Assembly: GCA_000421065.1 (NCBI GenBank)
Contig: ATWD01000001.1
Span: 1-64,000 of the forward strand
DNA from: Acidobacteriaceae bacterium TAA 166
GTDB taxonomy: Bacteria > Acidobacteriota > Terriglobia > Terriglobales > Acidobacteriaceae
Length of the DNA: 64,000 nucleotides
Direction: 5' to 3'
Shown piece after piece: positions 32,215-47,576 of this stretch (positions are counted from its first letter, which is position 1; every line of letters starts with the position of its first letter). A model generated the notes under the pieces. It saw nothing but the letters and a program-made list of their open reading frames with translations, did not search any database and had not been told where the DNA came from. A program made the translations under genes and the position numbers.

Positions 32215-33540
32215 TTAACTGATTTGTGAAACATTGTTCAAGCGCGACACCTGTTTCATTAACTGAACCATTTCAACAACGGCGTTATGCTGGTCAAATT
32301 CTGCGGCCAGTTCTCGCACTCGCTTGGCGTAAGCCTTTTCTCGAAGCACTGTATCGATAGCAGCCGACAAATCTTGCACTGTCGGGTACGCTTTCCCCAG
32401 GCTAATACCTGCACCTGCCTGGGCCACACGCATTCCATTCTCTGGTTTGTCTCCATCTTCGCCCGAAACAACCAACGGAACTCCCTGCTGGAGCGCCAAG
32501 CAGATCGTACCGTATCCACCGTTTGTCACTACAAGCGATGCGTGCTTCAAAAGTGCGTACAGGGGAACAAATGTTGATATGAAGGCATTGCTTGGCAATT
32601 CCATACCTATCTCTTTCACCGGCCGCCCGCCCGTTGTCGCGATTACGATGATGTCTTGACGCTCGGCCAGGGCGCGGATTGTAGGCGCTAACAATTGGCT
32701 AAGATCTCGATTCTCCAAGGTGCCCTGAGTCACGATAACCAGACGCTTGCCGCTATCTACATGAGCCTGCAGATCAGCGGAAAGGCCATTATTTTCTATG
32801 GAAGGAAGATTACCGATGAATTGCACCGTATCAGGAAGGTCGGATCTCGGAACTTCAAAACTGCGAACTCCCAATTGCATATGAATATCCGGCACTCGAA
32901 TCAAGGCATCAAACAAGTCACAAGGAAGTTCTGTCGCTCCCAGCTCTGCCAATATTGAATTCACTCGGTCCGTCAGCGGGATATTCCAAACCGGCGCTAG
33001 CTCATTCGCCATTTTCCGATAAGCGACAGCCTCAGGTGAATCGGGTGCAACAGGCATTAGGCCAGGACCGAACAGAGCACCATCATCTCGATGCAAGGGC
33101 ATGGGTACGACGCCTAAATTTGCAACGACTGGACGTTTCTTACCAAGGGCTCCCAGCACGATGGGCTGTGCACCCAGATAACCGGTCTCGCTCAGGATCA
33201 CGTCCGCAGGAAACTGCTCCAATAGAGTACAAAGCCCGTGGTATTGGGCCTTCATTGGCTCGAGGTGAATCTTGACTATGTCAAAAGTGAATCGCTCCAG
33301 ACCAACTGGGATGTTCTTGCGTTCTGGGTAGGCTGAGTCCAGATCAGACAAGTCAAGGTGCGCGCCATTCGGTGCGGGCACAAAGTAGAGTCCGGCCGCC
33401 TCGGCTCTGGCACGGAATGGTTCCGCAGTGGTAAAAGCGACTTGATGACCTGCGTCTTGTAGAACTCGGCCCGCCTGAATCATAGGGGTAACATGACCTG
33501 AAAGAGGCGTAGAGGTCAAAATAATCCGCATATTGTCCAT
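32215..33540 (-). CDS. GT1-type (UDP-glucuronosyl/MGT-like) glycosyltransferase
   Basis: Glycosyltransferase of 441 residues with GT-B layout. The N-terminal domain begins RIILTSTPLSGHVTPMIQAG with the catalytic-base His in SGHVTP, and the C-terminal donor-binding domain contains RLVIVTQGTLENRD, TFVPLYALLKHASLVVTNGG, YGTICLALQQGVPLVVSGED and KPENGMRVAQAGAGI. This matches macrolide/flavonoid glycosyltransferases that add UDP- or TDP-sugars to small molecules. AAGGAG precedes the ATG. A decayed relative is at 45889-46730. No biosynthetic cluster surrounds it, so an antibiotic-inactivation or xenobiotic-conjugation role is as likely as biosynthesis. Confidence 0.88.
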   Translation of the reverse strand: MDNMRIILTSTPLSGHVTPMIQAGRVLQDAGHQVAFTTAEPFRARAEAAGLYFVPAPNGAHLDLSDLDSAYPERKNIPVGLERFTFDIVKIHLEPMKAQYHGLCTLLEQFPADVILSETGYLGAQPIVLGALGKKRPVVANLGVVPMPLHRDDGALFGPGLMPVAPDSPEAVAYRKMANELAPVWNIPLTDRVNSILAELGATELPCDLFDALIRVPDIHMQLGVRSFEVPRSDLPDTVQFIGNLPSIENNGLSADLQAHVDSGKRLVIVTQGTLENRDLSQLLAPTIRALAERQDIIVIATTGGRPVKEIGMELPSNAFISTFVPLYALLKHASLVVTNGGYGTICLALQQGVPLVVSGEDGDKPENGMRVAQAGAGISLGKAYPTVQDLSAAIDTVLREKAYAKRVRELAAEFDQHNAVVEMVQLMKQVSRLNNVSQIS

Positions 33541-35408: not shown

Positions 35409-38400
35409 TTACCAACCGATACCGAATGCCATATGTTCCGGCTTCGGCGTATTGATCGTCGTGCTTTGGTTGTTGTTGTCATCATAAGAAAAGCCATATG
35501 CCAAGCCTCCTATGGAATGCTTGTGCCAAAACTGAGAGTAGAAGTTAGCTGGTCCGCTTCCGTAGTAGGCTGAAACATTGCTCCATTCCGCAGGGGCGAA
35601 AAAGACGTGGCGGTTGATGGCCGAGCATATCTGATTCTCCAGTTGTTTTTGCTCATTGTCCTCATCAGTGAGACGATCCGTGCTGCGGTCAGTGCCCAAG
35701 GCCATGGTGCCATCGCAGCCAAGTATGTCTTGTGTGGAAGGCTGCTGCACCACAAATACTTCACCAGATTTTTCCGGAACTGGATTGACCTCAGTGAAAG
35801 TGAACTTCGGTCCTGATGTTGTACCAATGAACTTACGATTCGCCAAGGCTATCGTGAGTGGAGTTCCGCTGTATTGTGCCCAGCCACTCGTGATGTAGTT
35901 ATCGAAGTAGTTCGCATTCGCGCCGCCAGGGGCCATGGAGAGCTTGGCTGGCGAGAAGATGCGAAGATCGGACATTGTGGCTGGCTGGAATTGCGCTGGC
36001 ACCTCACTAGCGAACTCACTATCGATTTGCGCAACCGACTCGGTAATTCCAACCTGCTGATGGAAGCTTCCACCGTCACCCCACACATCGAGCAACAGGG
36101 GCAGCCCGAACTGATCAACTTGCGTCGTGTTGATGAAGATGCCGTTGACATTGTTGAATTCGTACCAGTCATAGTGCGTGTTGATATTGGGGTCGGTCGC
36201 ATTCTGTGGGTTGGGTCCCGCATAGCCTGCAACGCCACCCATTCCATTCCCATTTACCTGAACATACAATGGTTCTCCCAGCGAGATATAGGCACGGGCT
36301 GAGGTGAAAGGAGGGACCTTCAACAGCTTGCTTTGCGCCAACGTGAAGGAATAGTTACCGTAGTTCTGACCGTTCTTCGTCAAGTGCCCAGGGGCAGAAG
36401 TATCGGCGAGAGTGAAGTTTACGATTGTACCGTCAGGAGTCAAATAAGAGTAGTTTCCATTTTGATCTTGCCCGATCACCGTGACGTAAATTTGGTTGTC
36501 AGCCCACGCACCCTTCGTGTTGTTATTGAGATCGACCCCAATAAATCCCGGATAGATCGTGTAGCCTGAGCCGGAGTTATTGACTGTAAGAATGGCACCC
36601 GATGAAGTGACCGTACCGTTCGGATTACCGACTGTGACACTGTAGGCTTCCCCGTTATCAGTTGCTGACAAGACGGGTGTTGTGTAACTCGCCGCAGTGG
36701 CGCCCGAAATGGAGATACCATTCTTAAGCCACTGATAGGTGAATGGAGCCGTCCCGCCTGCAACTACGGTAAAGGTTGCCGTAGCCCCTACATCAACGGA
36801 TTGGCTCACAGGTTGCGTGGTGATCGTCGGTGCGGTACCAACTCCATATACCTCGAATTCGTAAAGCGAGTAGCCATACGGTGTTGCACGCGCTATTCCA
36901 AACATACGGACGTAGCGTCCGCTTACGGGTGGGAAGGTAAGGTTCTCCACTCCTCCCTGACCATTGGACTGGTTAAACGCTGTGGTCCAGGTCTTCTCGT
37001 CATTTGAGACCTGAATCTGATAGGCCTTGCCGTAAGAATTTTCCCAGTGAAGAATAACCTGCCCGATGGTTCTTGGCGATCCAAGATCGACTTCGATCCA
37101 TGAGGCATCCGCGAAGGCCGATGACCAACGTGTATTGAGGTTGCCATCGACGGCGTTTGCCGAGCCAAGGTTGACGTCATTCTCGCTGCCACTCTCCTTG
37201 GTGGGCTGATTCAGCGCCAAGTTTAATCCCGTTGGGCTACCAGCGTTGACAGTCACGATCGCCTTGGAAGAAGTACTTGCTCCATTGGCATTGCTGACCT
37301 TGACAGTGATGACGCTTCCATTATCTGCAGACATCAGGACTGGCGTTGTATAGTTAGCCGCGGTTGCACCGGGAATTGCCACCCCGTTCCTGAGCCACTG
37401 ATATGTGAACGGTCCATCACCTCCTGCAACAACAGTGAAGGTCGCCTTATCCCCGGCACTCACTGTTTGGCTGAGAGGTTGCGATGTGATTGAGGGTACA
37501 TCCGCGCCATAAATCTGGAACTCATAGAGCGAATAACCGTACAGCGTAGCTCTTTCCGTGCCATTGAAGCGAATGTAGCGTTCGATAATGGCGGGGAAGG
37601 TTAGCGTCTCGACGCCGCCCTGCCCTACCGTCTGCGTGTAAACCGTGGTCCAGGTTTGTTCATCGTTTGATACCTGTATCTGGTACGCCTTTCCAAATGC
37701 GGCCTCCCAGTACAAGACAACCTTATTTACAAGCGTCGGTGTGCCGAGGTCAACCTCAAGCCATGAAGGATCAACGAAGGCGGATGACCAACGTGTAGTG
37801 AGGTCGCCGTCCACAGCATTTAGTGGGCCTAGGCCGTCATTTTCATTTCCACTTGAGGTTACGGACTTTCCGAGTGCGAGATTGGCCACGCCGGATACTG
37901 GATTTGTGACGGTCAGGGAGGCATTGGCGGAGGTAACCGATCCTCCGGCATTGCTCACTGTCACGCTGAAAACAGCACCGCTATCCATCGAGGTAACCTC
38001 GGAAACTGTATAGGCAGCACCGGTTGCGCCCGGGATAGCAATTCCGTTGCGCAACCACTGGTACGAAAATGGAGGGTTGCCGCCTGCCACGACCGAGAAT
38101 TGCGCCTGGGAGCCTGCGATTGCCGTCTGGCTAACGGGTTGGGTCACAATCGTTGGAAGGACGGGACCGTATACCTCAAATTCCCACAGAGAGTACCCGT
38201 ACTGAGAAGCGCGCTGGATTCCGTACATTCTGACAAAGCGCGCATGGACGACCGGAAACACAAGGTTTTCGCTTCCTCCCTTCCCAGCAGGTTGATTGAA
38301 CGCCGTGCTCCACGTCTGCCCGTCAGTTGAGGTCTGAATCTGGTAAACGGTTCCGAAGGACCTCTCCCAGCGCAAAACCACCTGTCCGATCGCCTGAACA

Positions 38401-41400
38401 GAACCCAAGTCAATCTGTATCCATGAGGGATCCACAAAAGCGGATGACCAGCGCGAGGTGAGGTCGCCATCTGCGGCGAGACTCGGAGGAAAAGAGGTAT
38501 CCTGGTCGCCGCTCGATATAACCTGCCTGCCGAGTGCCAGGTTTGGGCCAACTGGCACGGGCCCCGACCCAAATCCGGGAATAGCAGTATCCGTATTGTT
38601 TGTATTTCCTGGATCGCCGCCCCCACCGTCGACCGGCGGAGGAGCATTGTCGGTGACTGTGAGCACACCCGCGGTGCTGGCTGCGCTGAGTCCATTGCCG
38701 CCAGTCACGGTGACACTGAACTGAGCATTGTTGTCGATATCGGAGACGGCTGGCGTGGTATAGGAAGGCACACCGGTGACGGAGACGGGAGCGCCGTTCT
38801 TGAACCACTCGTAGGTTGTTGGCGCCGTACCAGAGGTTGTGGCAACAACGTTGAACTGGGCCGCCAGCCCCACATTCGAGGTTGTATTCGTCGGCTGAGC
38901 AGTAATCGCCGGAGCAACCGCAGTCGGTCCTTGAGTGCAAACCACCGCCCCAGGCGAATTGTCGATAATGCTGAAATCGATCGCACCTGCGGACGAGACT
39001 GTATAGGCACGTTCAGGATCTGACGGATCGGCGGTCGATGTCCATGTACTCCATGGCTTCGGGAAGGCGCACGATGCGGCATTGCTGCCGCTGATCGCAA
39101 TCGCTTCATCTCGGGTTGGAATTCGCATTCCTTGTTGGGCACAATACGCGATTGCGCTGCCTTGCGTGAACTGTGCCCCAGGGTCCGCAAGTGTGAATTC
39201 GGAACGGCTCCAAGTAAGACCACTCAGGTTGTCCAGCAACAGTCCTGTATTTGTCCCGTTGATCGTATAACGTTCGCTCGACGGACCACAGAGGGCGGCG
39301 TTGTAGATCGAGAATTCAAACAGAGAGTATCCATACTGGGTCGCGCGCTGTGTGCCAAACATCCGCACATAGCGTGCCTTCTGAGTCGGGAAGGTGAAGT
39401 CCTCTACTCCCCCGGAACCAGATTTTTGATCATAAGCAGGTGTCCAAGTAACATTGTCGTCCGACACCTGGATCTGATAAGCGACAGCATAGGCGTTCTG
39501 CCAGTTCAGGACCACACGATTGAAGGTCATGACCGCACCAAGATCAACTTCCAGCCACTGGGGATCGCTAAATGCGGAACCCCACCGAGTGTTGGTGGCA
39601 TCGCCATCGAATGCCGCGCTTGCCGGAAGTGCTTGTTGATCTTCGTAGCTGCTGGCGACAGCTGTCTTTCCAAGCGCAAGGTCAAAGCCTGGAGGTGCAA
39701 GTGTCAGGACAGCTGGTGCGCTGGTTGCCGCCCCTGCGATGTTGGTTGCAATAACGGTATAGGCACCTATATTGCCGTTTTCCACAGACGGAATGACAAG
39801 GGTAGAAGTGCTTGAACCATCGCTATTCTGCACGTTCGTTACGCTGGCGGAGTTGGACGCAATACTGCTGCCTCCACTCTGCCACTGAAATGCGATAGGC
39901 GTGGTGCCCTGAACTGCAACAGCGAAAGTAGCGGACTGCCCTGGCAGAACGCTAATATTTCCAGGCTGCGCGACGATGGCCGGAGGAACGGCGGCACTAA
40001 CTGTCAAGGTTGCCGACGCCGAGGCGATGGTGTTGACCGGGTTCTTGATCGACACAGCAAATACCTCGCCGCTGTCTTCAACCGTAAGCACAGGGGTTGT
40101 ATAAGTCGACCCTGTGGCTCCCGCTATTGGAGTCCCATTCTTCAACCACTGATATTGAAGAGTAGGAGAGCCGGCGGCGATAACCGAGAAGGTGGCAGTC
40201 TGTCCCGCGAAGGCGGTTCGCGAGATTGGTTGCGTTTTAATTGTAGGAGCTTCTGCTGTGTCTACGGTGAGAGTTGCCGCACTCGAAGTGGCTTCGCCCA
40301 GACTGTTGCTGACGACCACCGTAAAGCGCGCGCCGTTGTCGGCACTTGTCGTCGCTTCCGTAGTCAGAGCGGTTTCCGTAGCAGTGGGGATCGGGGAGCC
40401 ATTCTCCATCCACTGGAAGCTGAGTGGAGACGCACCGGATGCAGTGACGGCAAAATGTGCCGGTTGACCGAGAGTGACCGCAGCATTCACTGGTTGGGCA
40501 ATGATGGAAGGGCGAGTAGCCGCGGGCGTGGACTGTGGCGCTGCCTGTGAAATCGAGTAGGAAGCTGTTCCGCTACCGAGGCCAGGGGAGGTTGCGACAA
40601 CGGTGACTGTTCCTGTTGTGAACTGGCTGCGGATCGCTATCTTTTGCAACCCCCCTTCGGCCTGTAGCTCCGGATCTCCAGGAGAGTGATAACCCAGCGG
40701 CTTAGTCGGGGTTACAAGTTGCTGTGTCCCTCCCATGTATGTTCCGGGTCCCGTGACGGCAAAGGTTATGCTGTTCGAAGCAGTTGGAACGACAACACCG
40801 TTAGCATCGACAACTTTGGCAACGACGAAAGCGGTATCGGAACCATTGGCGGTTATGGCAAACGAGGAACCGTCGGGGCGAACCACTTCGGGAACAAGGT
40901 CCAGTTCGATATGGTCTGCATTGCCGGCGGTTACCTGCTGGTCGGTAGCAACGGTACGGCCAAAAGAGTCAAGACATGCGGCTGTTACAGTGCCGCTCGC
41001 CCACGTCACATTCCAGTGGACCTGGCCAGCGAGACTTGTGGTATTTTGCGTCGCAGCAACATCACCGTCGTTGCTGGCCGTTGATGTCGCTGAATTAGGG
41101 ACTTGATCCGCGCCCTGGGGAACACCGTTAATCAACAGACGAACCTGAGGGCAGTTGCTGAATGCATTGACGGTAATTGCCCCGGTCCGGTTCCAGGTGT
41201 TCGCGAGCTTCACCACAGGCTTGATCTGATACGGAACCCAGTTCGCCTGGTTGATGTAGTAGAGCATCCTGGGAAAACGATTGAAGTCGGTCATCGAGTC
41301 GCCGATCGAACGCTCCAGGGTTTGGTCTGTGAGATCCGTATAGGTGCCAGTCTCTCCTGGAGAATCGGCGAAGTACCATTGTGCCAATCCGAAGACATGC

Positions 41401-43100
41401 GCTGTGACGCCCTGGCTCCAACTGTCGACATATGGTGCTGCGAAGGAGAGTTCATTGTCGTAGTCCTGACGAATGGTCCCCGTTCCCCAATATTCAGCGC
41501 CCCACGCGGGATTGTCCGGGAACTGCTGTTTTACGCCGACATCGCATCCCTCCCGAGAGCAGCTCAGAATATCGCCATTGGCTGGATTGGGCGTACGATC
41601 CGACTGCGCGCGCAGAGCCAGGTTGTCCCACTGTGTGCCGATCGCTTTCAGCTGCACCGCTAGCGGCGTGTTCATCTGACCGTTATTTGCCTCCCACGCG
41701 AGGATCGAGGGATGGTTTCGATCACGGACAATCATGTCGCGATGCAGTTCCTTTTTCAGGGTCTCTCGATCACAGGTTGGGCCATCGTCACATTGATTTT
41801 GAAATGAATTCTCTCCGTCCCCGCTCGGCTGAACGATCATGATGCCCAGAGCATCTGCAGCATTCACAAATTCTTCGCTTGACGTTGAATGCCCGGGGCG
41901 CCAGAGATTGCCGCCGGCAGCTGCGAGTTGCTGTAGATCACGCCATTGTTGCTCTTCTGGGACGGAAGTACCCAGAGCTGGATAGTCATATCGACCCGAA
42001 GCTCCCCAAAGATGCTGAGGTTTACCGTTGAAATAGGGAAAGTCTTTGTCCCAAGTGAGCGTCCGAATTCCAAGAGGACTCTGCACCGCATCGATGACAA
42101 CACCGTTCACGCTGACGGTATGGAAGACCTTATACATATAAGGCTTTCCGTAGATACTGTTGTTGGGATACCAGAGTGTGGGATTCTTGACGGTCAGCAT
42201 CTGATCAAATGTTGGCGACTGGGCAGCAAATCCTCCAACTCCGGTCGCGGGGATGGTTTTCGCATCCTGCGCTGTTGCCACGACATTTCCCTGGGCATCG
42301 ACAATCTGCGTGGTGAGCGTAACATCCTGATTGCCCGTTCCTTCGTTCAAGACATTTGTCTGAACCTCGACCTCCGCCGTGCTGTCGCTGGCAGAAACCG
42401 TATTGACATACGTCCCCCACGTGCCTAGCCCTGCGTAGATATTCTGCGGGATGTGGACCGGATCGGTGATGTACATGTATGTTGGGCGGAAAAGCCCGGA
42501 GTCAGATTGTCCAAATCGGAAAGCCTCCGAGAAACCTGGGTCTTCAAACCAACCTGCACTCTTAGCGACACGAACTGCGAGAACATTGTCTGACCCATCG
42601 AATTTCAGATACGGCGTGAGGTCCACGATAAACGGCACGAAGCCAACAACGTGTGTCGCTTGTGGATTGATGGCGCTGTTGCCAGATAAAAATTGGCCGT
42701 TGATGTATACCTGAGCGCCAGTGTGTGCGCCCTCAAAGACGACTTCGACTTTGCTCTTGGCATACTGAGGGTCCATCGGGAAGTGCTTGCGATACCAAAT
42801 CACCGTACCGCTTAGGAAAGCCTGCCCACCTCCCGATTGGGTATTGAGAAAAGTGTCTAACTGGTCGGCAGAATAAGGAATGCCCACTTGCTTCCAAGCG
42901 GAGTCGTCAAAGCCTGGTGCCTGAGCATTCGCAGGGTCCTGATCCTTCGAAAACTGCCAGGGGGTCTCGCCCAAATTGATGACGACTCGCTTCGAAGGTG
43001 CAAGTGTCGTGCCCTGAGCATCAGCAAATGGTAATAAGTTGAAAAGGCACAAGGCAAAGAGACAGGTGAAGCGGAAGGCACAACGAACGTGCTTGTTCAA
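35409..43100 (-). CDS. Secreted multi-module glycoside hydrolase: GH2-like, Ig-like, discoidin and GH64 domains
   Basis: Exported protein of about 2563 residues from TTG 43100 (GAGG eight bases upstream; a TTG at 43133 is the alternative). A signal peptide (FTCLFALCLFNLLPFADA) is followed by GH2 sugar-binding, Ig-like and barrel domains to about residue 665: VNLGETPWQFSKD-like start, VYINGQFLSG, FNGKPQHLWGASGRYDYP, NHPSILAW near 462 and AEYWG with Glu 536. Three Ig-like repeats follow, then four discoidin (F5/8 C) modules near 1135, 1515, 1737 and 1959, separated by Ig-like repeats; a DUF1566-like insert (GLTWSRSE) follows the first. The last 385 residues are GH64-like (beta-1,3-glucanase), with Glu 2314 in DWYEF and Asp near 2329 in TQVDQFGLP. 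Likely degrades complex glucans such as fungal walls. Exact linkages are unproven. Confidence 0.85.
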   Translation of the reverse strand: MNKHVRCAFRFTCLFALCLFNLLPFADAQGTTLAPSKRVVINLGETPWQFSKDQDPANAQAPGFDDSAWKQVGIPYSADQLDTFLNTQSGGGQAFLSGTVIWYRKHFPMDPQYAKSKVEVVFEGAHTGAQVYINGQFLSGNSAINPQATHVVGFVPFIVDLTPYLKFDGSDNVLAVRVAKSAGWFEDPGFSEAFRFGQSDSGLFRPTYMYITDPVHIPQNIYAGLGTWGTYVNTVSASDSTAEVEVQTNVLNEGTGNQDVTLTTQIVDAQGNVVATAQDAKTIPATGVGGFAAQSPTFDQMLTVKNPTLWYPNNSIYGKPYMYKVFHTVSVNGVVIDAVQSPLGIRTLTWDKDFPYFNGKPQHLWGASGRYDYPALGTSVPEEQQWRDLQQLAAAGGNLWRPGHSTSSEEFVNAADALGIMIVQPSGDGENSFQNQCDDGPTCDRETLKKELHRDMIVRDRNHPSILAWEANNGQMNTPLAVQLKAIGTQWDNLALRAQSDRTPNPANGDILSCSREGCDVGVKQQFPDNPAWGAEYWGTGTIRQDYDNELSFAAPYVDSWSQGVTAHVFGLAQWYFADSPGETGTYTDLTDQTLERSIGDSMTDFNRFPRMLYYINQANWVPYQIKPVVKLANTWNRTGAITVNAFSNCPQVRLLINGVPQGADQVPNSATSTASNDGDVAATQNTTSLAGQVHWNVTWASGTVTAACLDSFGRTVATDQQVTAGNADHIELDLVPEVVRPDGSSFAITANGSDTAFVVAKVVDANGVVVPTASNSITFAVTGPGTYMGGTQQLVTPTKPLGYHSPGDPELQAEGGLQKIAIRSQFTTGTVTVVATSPGLGSGTASYSISQAAPQSTPAATRPSIIAQPVNAAVTLGQPAHFAVTASGASPLSFQWMENGSPIPTATETALTTEATTSADNGARFTVVVSNSLGEATSSAATLTVDTAEAPTIKTQPISRTAFAGQTATFSVIAAGSPTLQYQWLKNGTPIAGATGSTYTTPVLTVEDSGEVFAVSIKNPVNTIASASATLTVSAAVPPAIVAQPGNISVLPGQSATFAVAVQGTTPIAFQWQSGGSSIASNSASVTNVQNSDGSSTSTLVIPSVENGNIGAYTVIATNIAGAATSAPAVLTLAPPGFDLALGKTAVASSYEDQQALPASAAFDGDATNTRWGSAFSDPQWLEVDLGAVMTFNRVVLNWQNAYAVAYQIQVSDDNVTWTPAYDQKSGSGGVEDFTFPTQKARYVRMFGTQRATQYGYSLFEFSIYNAALCGPSSERYTINGTNTGLLLDNLSGLTWSRSEFTLADPGAQFTQGSAIAYCAQQGMRIPTRDEAIAISGSNAASCAFPKPWSTWTSTADPSDPERAYTVSSAGAIDFSIIDNSPGAVVCTQGPTAVAPAITAQPTNTTSNVGLAAQFNVVATTSGTAPTTYEWFKNGAPVSVTGVPSYTTPAVSDIDNNAQFSVTVTGGNGLSAASTAGVLTVTDNAPPPVDGGGGDPGNTNNTDTAIPGFGSGPVPVGPNLALGRQVISSGDQDTSFPPSLAADGDLTSRWSSAFVDPSWIQIDLGSVQAIGQVVLRWERSFGTVYQIQTSTDGQTWSTAFNQPAGKGGSENLVFPVVHARFVRMYGIQRASQYGYSLWEFEVYGPVLPTIVTQPVSQTAIAGSQAQFSVVAGGNPPFSYQWLRNGIAIPGATGAAYTVSEVTSMDSGAVFSVTVSNAGGSVTSANASLTVTNPVSGVANLALGKSVTSSGNENDGLGPLNAVDGDLTTRWSSAFVDPSWLEVDLGTPTLVNKVVLYWEAAFGKAYQIQVSNDEQTWTTVYTQTVGQGGVETLTFPAIIERYIRFNGTERATLYGYSLYEFQIYGADVPSITSQPLSQTVSAGDKATFTVVAGGDGPFTYQWLRNGVAIPGATAANYTTPVLMSADNGSVITVKVSNANGASTSSKAIVTVNAGSPTGLNLALNQPTKESGSENDVNLGSANAVDGNLNTRWSSAFADASWIEVDLGSPRTIGQVILHWENSYGKAYQIQVSNDEKTWTTAFNQSNGQGGVENLTFPPVSGRYVRMFGIARATPYGYSLYEFEVYGVGTAPTITTQPVSQSVDVGATATFTVVAGGTAPFTYQWLKNGISISGATAASYTTPVLSATDNGEAYSVTVGNPNGTVTSSGAILTVNNSGSGYTIYPGFIGVDLNNNTKGAWADNQIYVTVIGQDQNGNYSYLTPDGTIVNFTLADTSAPGHLTKNGQNYGNYSFTLAQSKLLKVPPFTSARAYISLGEPLYVQVNGNGMGGVAGYAGPNPQNATDPNINTHYDWYEFNNVNGIFINTTQVDQFGLPLLLDVWGDGGSFHQQVGITESVAQIDSEFASEVPAQFQPATMSDLRIFSPAKLSMAPGGANANYFDNYITSGWAQYSGTPLTIALANRKFIGTTSGPKFTFTEVNPVPEKSGEVFVVQQPSTQDILGCDGTMALGTDRSTDRLTDEDNEQKQLENQICSAINRHVFFAPAEWSNVSAYYGSGPANFYSQFWHKHSIGGLAYGFSYDDNNNQSTTINTPKPEHMAFGIGW

Positions 43101-43828
43101 GGGTCGTTCCTCAATTAAGGTTATATGTCGCAACCAAGACCAGCAGAATAGGCATAATCGGTATTGAAAGTCGACCTTGTTGGGTTTGATTGCACTGATT
43201 CAATAGCCTGGCATTACTCCTAGACATTATGTGGTTTTGTTCTAGAAAGCTCTTTCAGAATTGGGTCATTCTGTCACACAGGTCACCTAATTAAATGATT
43301 CATCAGATTTCTTGCGACCTTCCACCCAACATATTCCCGACTGTACCCCGGCAAATATCTGAATCAGATTTGGCCTGCGCTTCTCTTCTTCTGTAAATTG
43401 GAAAGATACTCGAGATTAGTTGTGTCATCAGCTGTATCCAGAAGATTCAGCTCTGGTTAGGTCCAGAGGCGACGACCGAAAGGAACCACAACTACTACTC
43501 GATCCCCCAATGCCATGTGACAGATCAAGTCGCTCAGGCTACCCTTGCGGCTATCAATTCGATCTTTGACCGTGTAAGACTCTACCCAACCCATTCCTGC
43601 CCCAAAATAAGAGATGCGATGTCCTTGGACGTCAGGAATGTCTTCCCATGCATAAGAAAAAGGCTGCGGAATCAAGTTCAGGCAGCTGCAATGCCACCAT
43701 CAACGAACAGGTTTACGAGCGGAGACTCCCACAACACCAGGTAATGCAGAGAAGGAATAAATATCTCTGGTCGTTGTCATCTTTACGGGAGGCTAGCGTA
43801 ATGATGGCCTTCACAGAAAGAGGAATCT
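43101..43828. other. Divergent promoter region with a possible coding relic
   Basis: About 730 bases between the giant hydrolase gene and a rightward hydrolase gene. On the minus strand 43457-43675 an open frame reads FSYAWEDIPDVQGHRISYF, then GAGMGWVESYTVKDR; it looks protein-like but I do not recognise it and its upstream part has no sensible continuation. The rest is AT-rich and should hold the promoters of both flanking genes. Confidence 0.35.
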
Positions 43829-44776
43829 TTGACTACCAAACTTCGGCCGACAACGGCCTCACTTATCGTCTTCCTTTTGCTCTCAGTCCCGAGCGCTTTT
43901 GCAGCACGGAATACGAGACTCGCCGAAGGCGAACATGTCGGGCATATCAATGGTCGAAGCTTTCGCTATTCCATCGCTGGACACGGTCCACTCGTGATTG
44001 TCCAGGCTCCAGGATGGGGTATTGGATCGGCATACCTCGAAAACGGACTAGCGCCTTTAAGGAAGCGCTTCACACTACTAGTCTTTGACCCTCGTGGGAC
44101 TGGCGGCTCAAGCCCGGTATTCAGAACTGATCGATTGACCAATGGGGATTTAGTGGAAGACCTGGAACAATTACGAAGCTACTGGGGTCTCGAGACGATG
44201 GACCTTATCGGGCATTCGAACGGCGGTGCGATAGCGATTCTTTACGCGGAACGCTATCCAAACCGGGTTCGTAAATTGCTGCTCATCGGATCGCAGCTGC
44301 TCGGATACAAAGGAACCGACAATCCAGTGCGTACAGCTGAAGTAGAACGTCGGAAAAGTGATCCGCAATTCACTTATTACCTCGCCCATATTGATGATCC
44401 AGCGCCAAAGACCGACGAAGCGTTCACACGATACTTTAAAGAACGCGCGGGATTCTATTTTTACGATCCATCAAAGGATGTGCCCACCTTTCTAAAGACC
44501 ATGACACGTCCTATGAGTGCTTCAGTCAACGAGGCATTTATTGAATCACCGCCTGTTTCTCAAGCTCCTCCGCTTGGAGATCTCACTAAAATCAATGCCG
44601 AAACATTGGTTATAGAGGGGCGACAGGACCCTGCCTGTCCTCTCGATGAATCAGAAAGAATTCGGGCGGGGATCACCAAATCGAAAATCGTAGCGATTGA
44701 TAGGTCGGGACATTTCCCCTGGATAGAACAACCGAAGATCTTTTTTTCAGCGGCGTTTAAGTTCTTGGAACAATAG
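43829..44776 (+). CDS. Secreted alpha/beta hydrolase (proline-iminopeptidase-like)
   Basis: Exported hydrolase of 315 residues from a TTG at 43829 (AGAGGA five bases upstream). The signal peptide is TASLIVFLLLSVPSAFA. The mature part shows GPLVIVQAPGWGIGSAYLEN (oxyanion segment without the usual HG), FDPRGTGGSSP, nucleophile elbow IGHSNGGAIAILYAERYP and the C-terminal acid/His pair in GRQDPACP and SGHFPWIEQP. This is the proline iminopeptidase/epoxide-hydrolase-like subgroup; peptidase or esterase activity cannot be decided. It ends at a strong hairpin. Confidence 0.85.
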   Translation: MTTKLRPTTASLIVFLLLSVPSAFAARNTRLAEGEHVGHINGRSFRYSIAGHGPLVIVQAPGWGIGSAYLENGLAPLRKRFTLLVFDPRGTGGSSPVFRTDRLTNGDLVEDLEQLRSYWGLETMDLIGHSNGGAIAILYAERYPNRVRKLLLIGSQLLGYKGTDNPVRTAEVERRKSDPQFTYYLAHIDDPAPKTDEAFTRYFKERAGFYFYDPSKDVPTFLKTMTRPMSASVNEAFIESPPVSQAPPLGDLTKINAETLVIEGRQDPACPLDESERIRAGITKSKIVAIDRSGHFPWIEQPKIFFSAAFKFLEQ

Positions 44777-45888: not shown

Positions 45889-46730
45889 ATGGCACGCATC
45901 GGATTTATCACTCTCTACACTCCAGGTCATCTAAATCCTTCACTTTGTCTTGCTCGCGCCCTCAAGAACCATCGGCATGAGGGCGTCTTCTTCAATGTTC
46001 CTGACACGGAATAGGCAATCGGAATAGCATGTATGCGATTGGTGCCATTCGCTCGATCTGCATTTCTGCCAGGATCTCTCCGGGTCAGCCTGCAAACGTC
46101 GGGAACCCTCTTCGGTGCTGCTACGTTTGCCTATTACGTGGAGCGTATACGCCCCATTTTCTTGGCCATGGCTCGGCGGACGCCCACTCATCTATGCGTC
46201 ATGTGAGACCATTCAAATCCGGCTTGAGCACGTTTTCCGGGCAATCGTTCACGTCTGTGCGCCTCTGGACGCGCAAACCGTCATCGCCCTCGGAGATGAT
46301 GGACTGTCTCCGGACCTGTTTGGGGAGATTCCACCGAACATCAAGCTGTTGAAGTACGTTCCTCAGCGAAGCCCTCTCGAGCAGGCCAGTCTCTGTATTC
46401 ACCACGGGGGATTCAACACCGCCCTAGGTTGTCTTGATCTTGGCGTACCAGCAGTCGTGATCCCAATCGCGAGCGAGCAGCCAGGAATAGCTATGCGCCT
46501 AACCCGAGTCGATGTGGCCGTTGTTTTGCCTCTTTCCGAACTGGCATCGCCCACACTCGGTAATGCAATCCATATGGCGTTCCATGACCCCAAATATCGC
46601 AACGCTGCTCTTAGCGCTGCCGACCAGTTACGAGAACCCCATCCAAGGGATGAGGCAGTTCATATTATTGAACGTGCTCTACCGTCTGCACTTCTTGCGA
46701 TCCAGGCCTTGCAAAGATGTTTGAAGCTCC
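45889..46730 (+). pseudogene. Decayed GT1-type glycosyltransferase
   Basis: The frame from ATG 45889 begins MARIGFITLYTPGHLNPSLC (GT-B start, His in PGHLNP), hits a TAG after about 42 codons, continues to FAYYVERIRPIFLAMARRTP, then shifts frame near 46170 and resumes as RPLIYASCETIQIRLEHVFR, PPNIKLLKYVPQRSPLEQAS and LCIHHGGFNTALGCLDLGVP with the donor-binding HHGGFNT motif. At least one stop and one frameshift, plus missing sequence in the middle, make it inactive. It belongs to the same broad family as the intact enzyme at 32215-33540. Confidence 0.8.
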
Positions 46731-46801
46731 GAAGACTTAGCAGAAGCTGCTCTCGCCAAGTCTTCGGACCGGATCCGACGGCAACCCTCCGAAACATGGA
46801 T

Positions 46802-47576
46802 CTACTGCCTTTCTTGAACTTTTTTGAACTGAGAGATCATGGGATTGATTTGACCGGGTACTTCGCAGGGCGAAAAATGTCCTGAACCGATGGTACGTGT
46901 ATAGATGAGTTGTGGAACAGGGCTCTGAAGTCCGTTCAAATCGGGTAACGGCATGATCGAAAAGATATACGTGATCGGAAGATGGCAAGCCACAGCTGCT
47001 TCAGTGGCATCGTAGCTCGTCGTATGGTTTGCGAGGGCTGATGCCAGAACATGTCTTTCCACGGTCATCGAAGCTATTAGATCCAAAGATCGCTCATCGG
47101 TTGGGAGGCACATTGTTATCGTCGAATGTCGATAAGCATCAAGATAGTGAGCTCCGGCGAAAGCCCCGGTCAAACTGTGCCAAAAGAGGTTCGAGCAACT
47201 CGGGTAGCGGAGGCACTACCGATTCAATCCTCGCAAGAGATGAAGGAATCTCCGGACGCTGAGCCGGCAACTCCAATCCTAGGTCTCCTCCCATACTATG
47301 TCCGAGCACGATAGGCTTAACCAACTCGAACCTACCGCACGGCCAAGCAATATCATCGGCGACCCCTGCCATGATGTAGTTCTGCTGGGGAGCGTCACTC
47401 ATCCCATCCCCCCGAAGATCAACGGCGATGACACGATGCGATCTACTGAAGAAGTTGATTTGTTGTGCCAACGAGAGATGATCAAAGCCACTACCATGAG
47501 TAAAAATCATAGGTAAGAATTCAGTGTGCGTATCTTCATAAACAAGCCTGACAGCGTCTCTTTTAATAAATTGCAC
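46802..47576 (-). pseudogene. Alpha/beta hydrolase with a single frameshift
   Basis: From GTG 47576 the protein shows LPMIFTHGSGFDHLSLAQQI, VDLRGDGMSDAPQ and nucleophile elbow VLGHSMGGDLGLEL, then stops early near 47139. The adjacent frame continues the same fold: TVERHVLASALANHTTSYDA, YIFSIMPLPDLNGLQ, then TIGSGHFSPCEVPGQINPMI with the catalytic His. The two parts overlap around 47140-47175, so one inserted or missing base explains the break. It is close to 3-oxoadipate-enol-lactonase-like hydrolases. If the shift is a sequencing error the gene is intact. Confidence 0.75.

What the first reader, a model, noticed from the sequence alone, without database searches (positions are those of the whole stretch)
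35409..43100. Giant secreted enzyme joining GH2 and GH64 catalytic domains through Ig-like and discoidin modules
The sequence shows a GH2-type N-terminal half, three or more Ig-like repeats, four discoidin modules with intervening Ig-like repeats, and a C-terminal GH64-like domain whose Glu/Asp pair is visible. GH64 domains are normally found in small single-domain glucanases, and I know of no standard architecture combining them with GH2. It could attack branched or mixed glucans with both ends of one long flexible protein, with the discoidin modules anchoring it to polysaccharide. The combination is inference from motifs read by eye.
Basis: partly seen in the sequence, partly recalled or inferred. 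Interest (0 to 1): 0.8.

Follow-up and report, generated by a model that had tools for sequence, protein, structure and literature searches.

The report
Giant GH2–GH64 enzyme, displaced catalytic acid
A bacterium related to Granulicella encodes a single 2,563-residue, predicted secreted protein with a GH2 sugar-cutting module at one end and a GH64 beta-1,3-glucanase module at the other, joined by Ig-like and discoidin modules; the same design recurs in many other bacteria, would likely serve to break down glucan-rich (probably fungal) walls, and its GH2 end lacks the usual catalytic acid, a job probably taken over by another conserved glutamate.

Summary
It is no assembly join: Granulicella mallensis X5P3 has a matching frame, 79% identical end to end. 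The architecture is not unique: 142 of 215 listed relatives carry both modules, each with GH2 before GH64. What stands out is the GH2 end. In 386 of 386 aligned rows (sets overlap) the acid/base position of the GH2 'NE' motif is Gly (370), Ala or Ser, never Glu or Asp, while the nucleophile and most of the -1 subsite are kept. The nearest solved structure, the beta-glucuronidase 6HPD, has Trp there; GH2_21 is the published precedent, with a substitute Glu that I map, by inference, to invariant E441. GH2 of this clade is tied to GH64 more than once: fused to two distant GH64 lineages, and as adjacent genes in two genomes. One Dyella-centred branch has lost the GH64 catalytic Asp (to Asn). New variant of a known kind; activity untested.

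The parts
35409..43100 (-). gene for the GH2-CBM32-GH64 protein, 2,563 aa from TTG at 43100
   Evidence: ORF; GAGGA 7 bases before the TTG; P0001
43017..43100 (-). signal-peptide-like N-terminus (residues 12-39: basic start, hydrophobic core, ADA-Q)
   Evidence: read from the sequence; no signal-peptide predictor was run
40566..42962 (-). GH2 module, residues 58-856 (GH2_N, Ig-like, TIM barrel, DUF4982, GH2_C5)
41811..41813 (-). E441, after strand 3, invariant; inferred substitute acid/base
   Evidence: 386 of 386; aligns with a Glu of 6HPD
41679..41696 (-). loop-4 motif W480-E481-A-N-N484-G485: Gly where the acid/base Glu should be
   Evidence: aligned with WSIGNE of 4ypj; conservation
41493..41495 (-). 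E547, nucleophile position
   Evidence: 386 of 386; aligns with ESEY of 6HPD
39720..40505 (-). three Ig-like domains
39318..39662 (-). discoidin/CBM32 module 1
   Evidence: E 2.6e-26
38985..39239 (-).
   Evidence: E 1.4e-5, 25.8 bits against a 34.9 cut-off; PF07603 listed for many relatives
38718..38858 (-). weak Ig-like domain
   Evidence: E 0.041, below cut-off
38181..38516 (-). discoidin/CBM32 module 2
   Evidence: E 5.7e-22
37908..38156 (-). Ig-like domain
   Evidence: E 1.1e-7
37521..37862 (-). discoidin/CBM32 module 3, nearest to Paenibacillus-type glucanase/chitosanase discoidin domain 4zy9
37248..37496 (-). Ig-like domain
   Evidence: E 1.6e-8
36858..37181 (-). discoidin/CBM32 module 4
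   Evidence: E 1.2e-29 (PF22633)
36582..36830 (-). Ig-like domain
   Evidence: E 1.9e-8
35424..36542 (-). GH64 module, residues 2198-2570
   Evidence: E 2.2e-80; 9vp9 E 3.8e-73
36159..36161 (-). E2325, GH64 proton donor position
   Evidence: 147 of 147; solved entries 5h9x and 5h9y differ here, Glu against Ala
36114..36116 (-). D2340, GH64 base position
   Evidence: Asp in 110 and Asn in 37 of 147

Best explanation
The gene encodes one long, predicted secreted protein whose C-terminal GH64 module likely cuts beta-1,3-glucan chains, whose four discoidin (CBM32) modules likely hold it on the wall, and whose N-terminal GH2 module likely removes terminal sugars by a retaining mechanism in which the usual acid/base glutamate is gone (Gly485) and another invariant glutamate, probably E441, would do that work. 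Shown: the frame, the domains and their order, recurrence, the Gly at the acid/base position, and the retained nucleophile and most -1 subsite residues. Inferred: secretion, activity of both ends, the identity of the replacement acid, and the substrate. I commit to a wall-degrading enzyme aimed at glucan-rich walls, fungal walls first. The inference rests on the GH64 family's beta-1,3-glucanase activity, on discoidin domains nearest to those of a glucanase/chitosanase, and on repeated coupling of this GH2 clade to GH64.
For: GH64 at 2198-2570 with E2325 and D2340 in place. GH2 fold by AlphaFold2 (pLDDT 89.5, pTM 0.93); 6HPD is the first solved match by sequence, by Foldseek (E 9e-80) and by Z (38.1, rmsd 2.1, 732 residues; tied with two further GH2 chains within one Z unit). 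Active-site audit of 387 GH2 rows, one of them without letters at these positions: E441, R381, H415, E481, N484, E547 and E594 in 386 of 386, R412 and W586 in 385 of 386. Position 485 is Gly in 370, Ala in 10, Ser in 6 of 386 (by set 209 of 209, 71 of 75, 90 of 102). The sets overlap; at 80% identity they make 111 clusters, 102 with Gly, 7 Ala, 2 Ser. Control: the other four GH2 genes of the same genome keep NE. Precedent: PMC12243196 reports for GH2_21 that the acid/base is replaced by Trp in the characterised enzyme, with another Glu (E402 of T2KN75) conserved and hypothesised to replace it (section 23); 6HPD shows Trp at that position in my alignment. Coupling: 142 of 215 listed proteins carry both modules, 142 of 142 with GH2 first, GH64 within 5 residues of the C-terminus in 141 of 142. 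A second, distant GH64 lineage is fused to this GH2 in G498 and lies next to it, as a separate frame on the same strand with its own signal-like N-terminus, in G072 and G141. One clade of all GH2-linked GH64 is rejected (AU p 2e-6 over 28 linked and 4 unlinked rows).
Against: No substrate was tested. E481, also invariant and the last residue of strand 4, and E594 are competing candidates for the acid. The match between E402 of T2KN75 and E441 rests on alignment and a numbering offset I could not check. The GH64 tree has long end branches that meet and only four unlinked rows. The eight neighbouring frames scanned hold no recognised polysaccharide-degrading gene: a luciferase-like monooxygenase, DUF418, two glycosyltransferases, two alpha/beta hydrolases, a TPR protein and one without a family. 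68 of 215 listed relatives have the GH2 without GH64, and on the GH2 tree the label fused/not fused needs at least 11 changes, frames cut off by contig ends counted as not fused. A Dyella-centred branch has lost the GH64 Asp.
Confidence: 0.55

Rival explanations
1. The GH2 module is a pseudoenzyme: a GH2 fold without general acid, kept as a sugar-binding or spacer domain for the GH64 enzyme.
For: No Glu or Asp at the acid/base position in 386 of 386 rows. In one branch GH64 lost its Asp too, so some of these giants might bind rather than cut.
Against: Nucleophile E547, Asn484, Arg412, His415 and Trp586 are kept in 385-386 of 386 rows, also in stand-alone relatives of about 950 aa without GH64. 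A pure binding domain would not be expected to hold these. GH2_21 has an active member without the canonical residue (PMC12243196, section 23).
Confidence: 0.22
2. The GH2 module works without any protein acid, on substrates with a good leaving group, or as a transferase (compare myrosinase or thioglycoligases, both recalled).
For: Gly in place of the acid/base resembles engineered acid/base mutants (recalled).
Against: Three other glutamates in or just after barrel strands (E441, E481, E594) are invariant in 386 of 386 rows, and a substitute Glu is proposed for GH2_21 (PMC12243196, section 23).
Confidence: 0.13
3. The protein mainly acts on algal, plant or bacterial glycans, not fungal walls; GH64 and CBM32 serve other beta-glucans (for example callose or bacterial curdlan).
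For: The nearest GH2 structure is titled a beta-glucuronidase, and P17_GH2 of Formosa agariphila, which I infer to be that enzyme, is listed among ulvan-degrading enzymes (PMC8511951, passage).
Against: Discoidin module 3 is nearest to a domain of a glucanase/chitosanase, and a discoidin domain of a beta-1,3-glucanase binds chitin best of three polymers and gives its GH16 module greater antifungal activity (PMC2789033, abstract, background and binding section).
Confidence: 0.3
4. The frame is an assembly join or a one-off fusion.
For: None found.
Against: Three full-length relatives at 79-81% identity, and 50 of 75 GH2 frames in 71 genome loci carry GH64 in the same stop-free frame.
Confidence: 0.01

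Closest known systems
GH2_21 and the solved beta-glucuronidase 6HPD (taken here, by inference, as T2KN75 / P17_GH2 of the ulvan pathway)
   Same: First match by sequence and Foldseek, first by a tied Z; acid/base Glu missing; equivalents of E441, E481, N484 and E547 kept.
   Different: 27-30% identity; Trp in 6HPD against Gly here; the R381-Y384 segment is different in 6HPD; its chain has 990 residues.
GH2_19 (PMC12243196, section 23)
   Same: Another GH2 subfamily in which some members lack NE: TV in the solved 7XYR, NA or NQ in others.
   Different: There NE is still the commonest form; here it is absent in 386 of 386 rows.
GH64 laminaripentaose-producing beta-1,3-glucanases (3gd0, 5h9x, 9vp9)
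   Same: Sequence match over the domain, Glu/Asp pair.
   Different: Members described in the passages read of PMC8394091 are non-modular, or bi-modular with a ricin-like domain; here GH64 ends a 2,563-aa chain.
Discoidin/CBM32 domains of a glucanase/chitosanase (4zy9, 2rv9; Paenibacillus by recall)
   Same: E 3.6e-37 for module 3 and shared core motifs.
   Different: Four copies interleaved with Ig repeats; one loop is a residue shorter; ligands unknown.
Paenibacillus LamA (GH16 beta-1,3-glucanase with CBM4 repeats and one discoidin domain; PMC2789033)
   Same: Large modular beta-1,3-glucanase with a polysaccharide-binding discoidin domain.
   Different: GH16 catalytic module; neither GH2 nor GH64 in its described architecture.

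Membership tests
GH64 | sequence match over the whole catalytic domain | tested here: met
   E 2.2e-80, profile 3-368 of 370
GH64 | catalytic Glu (donor) and Asp (base) | tested here: met
   E2325 and D2340 align with the pair in solved members; roles from PMC8394091 (passage)
GH64 | beta-1,3-glucanase activity | not testable with these tools
   no assay
GH2 | GH2 N, Ig-like and TIM-barrel fold | tested here: met
GH2 | nucleophile Glu in loop 7 with Arg in strand 2 | tested here: met
   E547 386/386, R412 385/386
GH2 | acid/base Glu of the NE motif in loop 4 | tested here: not met
   Gly485; Gly, Ala or Ser in 386 of 386 rows. PMC12243196 keeps GH2_21 and NE-less GH2_19 members in GH2 although they lack it, so I file it as a GH2 variant, not as a canonical GH2 enzyme
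GH2_21 | acid/base replaced, other Glu (E402 of T2KN75) conserved | tested here: inconclusive
   replacement seen, but by Gly, not Trp, Lys, Arg or Asn; E441 aligns with a 6HPD Glu, numbering offset unchecked
GH2_21 | assignment by the CAZy subfamily network or HMM | not testable with these tools
   model not held
CBM32 | F5/8-type-C sequence match | tested here: met
   four matches, E 6e-22 or better
CBM32 | carbohydrate binding | not testable with these tools
   no assay

The most novel reading that the evidence does not exclude
A widespread GH2 lineage has moved its catalytic acid out of loop 4, leaving an almost fixed Gly, and has been wedded more than once, by fusion and by gene adjacency, to GH64 glucanases as a two-ended machine against fungal walls; in one Dyella-centred branch the GH64 end has itself lost its catalytic Asp, turning the giant into a one-ended enzyme that still grips glucan.
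Probability: 0.35. Interest if true: 0.65.

Novelty: new variant of a known kind. Interest (0 to 1): 0.45.

Why it matters
It adds a large, uniform set of natural GH2 proteins without the textbook acid/base residue to the few cases in print (GH2_21, some GH2_19), so the proposed acid replacement can be tested with simple mutants. Repeated linkage to GH64, fused and side by side, suggests which activity this GH2 works with and gives a substrate hypothesis for proteins that databases now name variously beta-galactosidase, discoidin-domain protein or beta-1,3-glucanase family protein.

Tried and rejected
Assembly error: rejected. A polysaccharide-utilisation locus around the gene: not seen in eight neighbouring frames. 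Neighbours of the stand-alone Fibrobacterota GH2 genes as a clue to substrate: mixed and uninformative (7 such proteins; one GH95-like, three without a family). Promoter and terminator scan at 43000-43900: nothing found. A paper describing this fusion: none seen in the listings of ten searches, which showed 5-15 titles at most each; the main text of the GH2 subfamily paper has no 'GH64' (its supplements were not open to me). PMC8802321 (passages) lists a secreted GH64 protein of Andreprevotia ripae without its architecture. The library holds open-licence papers only, and Reisky 2019 is not held. Chitosan-binding residues of the discoidin domains are known to me only by recall, so I make no residue claim. 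Co-inheritance: GH2 and GH64 distances correlate (r 0.78, 0 of 500 permutations as high, 192 rows, loci and proteins partly the same), which shared ancestry alone would give; many pairs are discordant. Sampling: the three protein searches listed only the best 120 of 188, 421 and 1,828 hits, so the counts describe near relatives, not GH2 at large. A first GH64 tree took the wrong, antisense frame for three loci (L019, L029, L031); it was redone with the right frames and a mixture model, without L037 (identical to P0104), which is the one cited; the rejection of one clade stayed.

Full report
What is there. The minus-strand frame 35409-43133 is open for 2,574 codons. The most likely start is the TTG at 43100, preceded by GAGGA at a distance of seven bases, giving 2,563 aa. 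Residue numbers here follow the 2,574-aa frame. The N-terminus reads like a signal peptide (basic residues, hydrophobic core, ADA-Q); no predictor was run. Pfam finds the GH2 domains, four discoidin stretches, Ig domains and GH64; piecewise scans give the order GH2, Ig x3, CBM32, Lcl_C-like (below cut-off), weak Ig (below cut-off), CBM32, Ig, CBM32, Ig, CBM32, Ig, GH64. The four CBM32 copies are 49-64% identical to each other. The genome shows one GH64 match and five GH2 barrel matches, this one included.

Not an artefact, not unique. Granulicella mallensis X5P3 has a 2,572-aa frame, 79% identical over 2,571 columns, and two database proteins match at 81%. Two protein searches listed 215 distinct proteins (the best 120 of 188 and of 421 hits). 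Of these, 142 carry both modules, 68 GH2 only and 5 GH64 only; in 142 of 142 GH2 precedes GH64, and in 141 of 142 GH64 ends within five residues of the C-terminus. A genome scan returned 71 loci with 75 GH2 frames; 50 of the 75 carry GH64 in the same stop-free frame: 43 Pseudomonadota, 6 Acidobacteriota, 1 without phylum, in genera such as Dyella, Paraburkholderia, Luteibacter, Pandoraea and Nitrospirillum. Some of the 25 others are cut off by contig ends. In the window's own phylum the GH64 family is patchy: 11 of 396 genomes and 6 of 150 of the family, the window's genome included in both. By a profile of the window's four copies, the 142 fused proteins hold one to five CBM32 copies.

The GH64 end. 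It matches solved GH64 enzymes (9vp9, 5h4e, 5h9x, 3gd0). E2325 is Glu in 147 of 147 rows; the solved entries 5h9x and 5h9y differ at this site, Glu against Ala. D2340 is Asp in 110 and Asn in 37 of 147; 36 of the 37 lie in proteins that also carry GH2. The roles, donor and base, are as given for GH64 in PMC8394091 (passage). On the GH2 tree the Asp/Asn difference needs one change, on a branch of 12 rows, ten of them Dyella by title. The window keeps Asp.

The GH2 end. The standard GH2 motif in loop 4 is NE, the Glu being the acid/base (PMC12243196, section 23). The window has W480-E-A-N-N484-G485; against 4ypj (WSIGNE) Gly falls on the Glu. Gly stands there in 209 of 209 near relatives, in 71 of 75 frames of genome loci, with 3 Ala and 1 Ser, and in 90 of 102 further proteins of 782-1,593 aa, with 7 Ala and 5 Ser: 370 Gly, 10 Ala, 6 Ser of 386. 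No Glu or Asp occurs. The sets overlap; clustered at 80% identity they give 111 representatives, 102 Gly, 7 Ala, 2 Ser. The 386 rows with letters all keep E441, E481, N484, E547 and E594; R412 and W586 are kept in 385. By their place in the model these are the strand-2 Arg, loop-4 Asn, loop-7 nucleophile and loop-8 Trp of the published GH2 active site; H415 (386 of 386) would be the loop-2 His. The loop-6 Tyr is missing: residues 527-542 of the window hold none. The other four GH2 genes of the same genome keep NE. AlphaFold2 gives a confident GH2 fold, with strand 4 ending at E481 and Gly485 in the loop after it. The first solved match is 6HPD, a beta-glucuronidase by title; by Z it leads two other GH2 chains by less than one unit, a tie. 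It has Trp at the acid/base position.

Known precedent. PMC12243196 (outline, sections 19, 20, 23 and 24, passages and part of the reference list seen) says of GH2_21 that the acid/base is replaced by Trp, citing Reisky 2019, is often Lys, Arg or Asn in the subfamily, and that another Glu (E402 of T2KN75) is conserved and hypothesised to replace it. It also reports NE-less members of GH2_19. I infer that 6HPD is the Trp enzyme and that E402 corresponds to 6HPD chain residue 411 and to E441 here; the nine-residue offset is unchecked. The window module is therefore GH2_21-like, with a residue, Gly, that the paper's text does not list.

Coupling to GH64. Besides the main fusion, a distant GH64 lineage is fused to this GH2 in G498 (3,059-aa frame) and lies directly beside it on the same strand in G072 and G141, as a separate frame with its own signal-like start. 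All three GH2 copies carry WE..NG. On a GH64 tree these three group with stand-alone GH64 of two Silvimonas genomes (100/100 support) and not with the main fusion; one clade of all 28 GH2-linked rows against 4 unlinked ones is rejected (AU p 2e-6). On the GH2 tree fused/not fused needs at least 11 changes, so GH64 has been gained or lost often, or cut off by contig ends. GH2 of this clade also stands alone in Fibrobacterota and one Spirochaetota bin, in tandem sets of three in two loci. The window's GH64 is 80% identical to that of P0003 while the GH2 modules are 62% identical, and its GH2 is 69% identical to Silvimonas proteins whose GH64 is 54-55%, so modules may have been exchanged, or evolve at different rates.

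How it would work. GH64 would cut beta-1,3-glucan; the discoidin modules, of which module 3 is nearest to a domain of a glucanase/chitosanase, would hold the chain to the wall. A discoidin domain of another beta-1,3-glucanase binds chitin, lichenan and Avicel (PMC2789033, section 13) and conferred greater antifungal activity on its catalytic module (background). The GH2 module would remove terminal sugars, with E547 as nucleophile and, most likely, E441 as acid/base. Binding, activities and substrate are inference.

Verdict. The unusual element is the missing acid/base in a large GH2 clade repeatedly linked to GH64, for which GH2_21 is the nearest known case.

Noticed in passing
L047 and eleven other loci of the Dyella branch; 37 of the proteins P0001-P0120 region, mostly P0054-P0096: GH64 catalytic Asp replaced by Asn in 37 of 147 proteins and 12 of 50 loci, one change on the tree; an Asn base is known in another inverting family (recalled), so activity is open.
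   Followed up: partly
L059:3714-12733; L069:3799-12706: Tandem sets of three stand-alone GH2 genes of the same acid-less clade in one Fibrobacterota bin.
   Followed up: partly
L099:2894-11981; L098:4517-14784: GH2-CBM gene directly beside a GH64 gene on the same strand; G141, whose contig length equals that of Silvibacterium bohemicum L055, holds this pair and a fused form (L101) as well.
   Followed up: yes
window 38985-39239: Lcl_C-like module between discoidin 1 and 2, function unknown, also listed for many relatives.
   Followed up: no
window 32215-33540 (-) and 46115-46885 (+): Two UDP-glycosyltransferase-like genes on either side of the giant gene.
   Followed up: no
window 35424-36542 against P0003: GH64 80% but GH2 only 62% identical to P0003: possible exchange of modules between fusion proteins.
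   Followed up: partly
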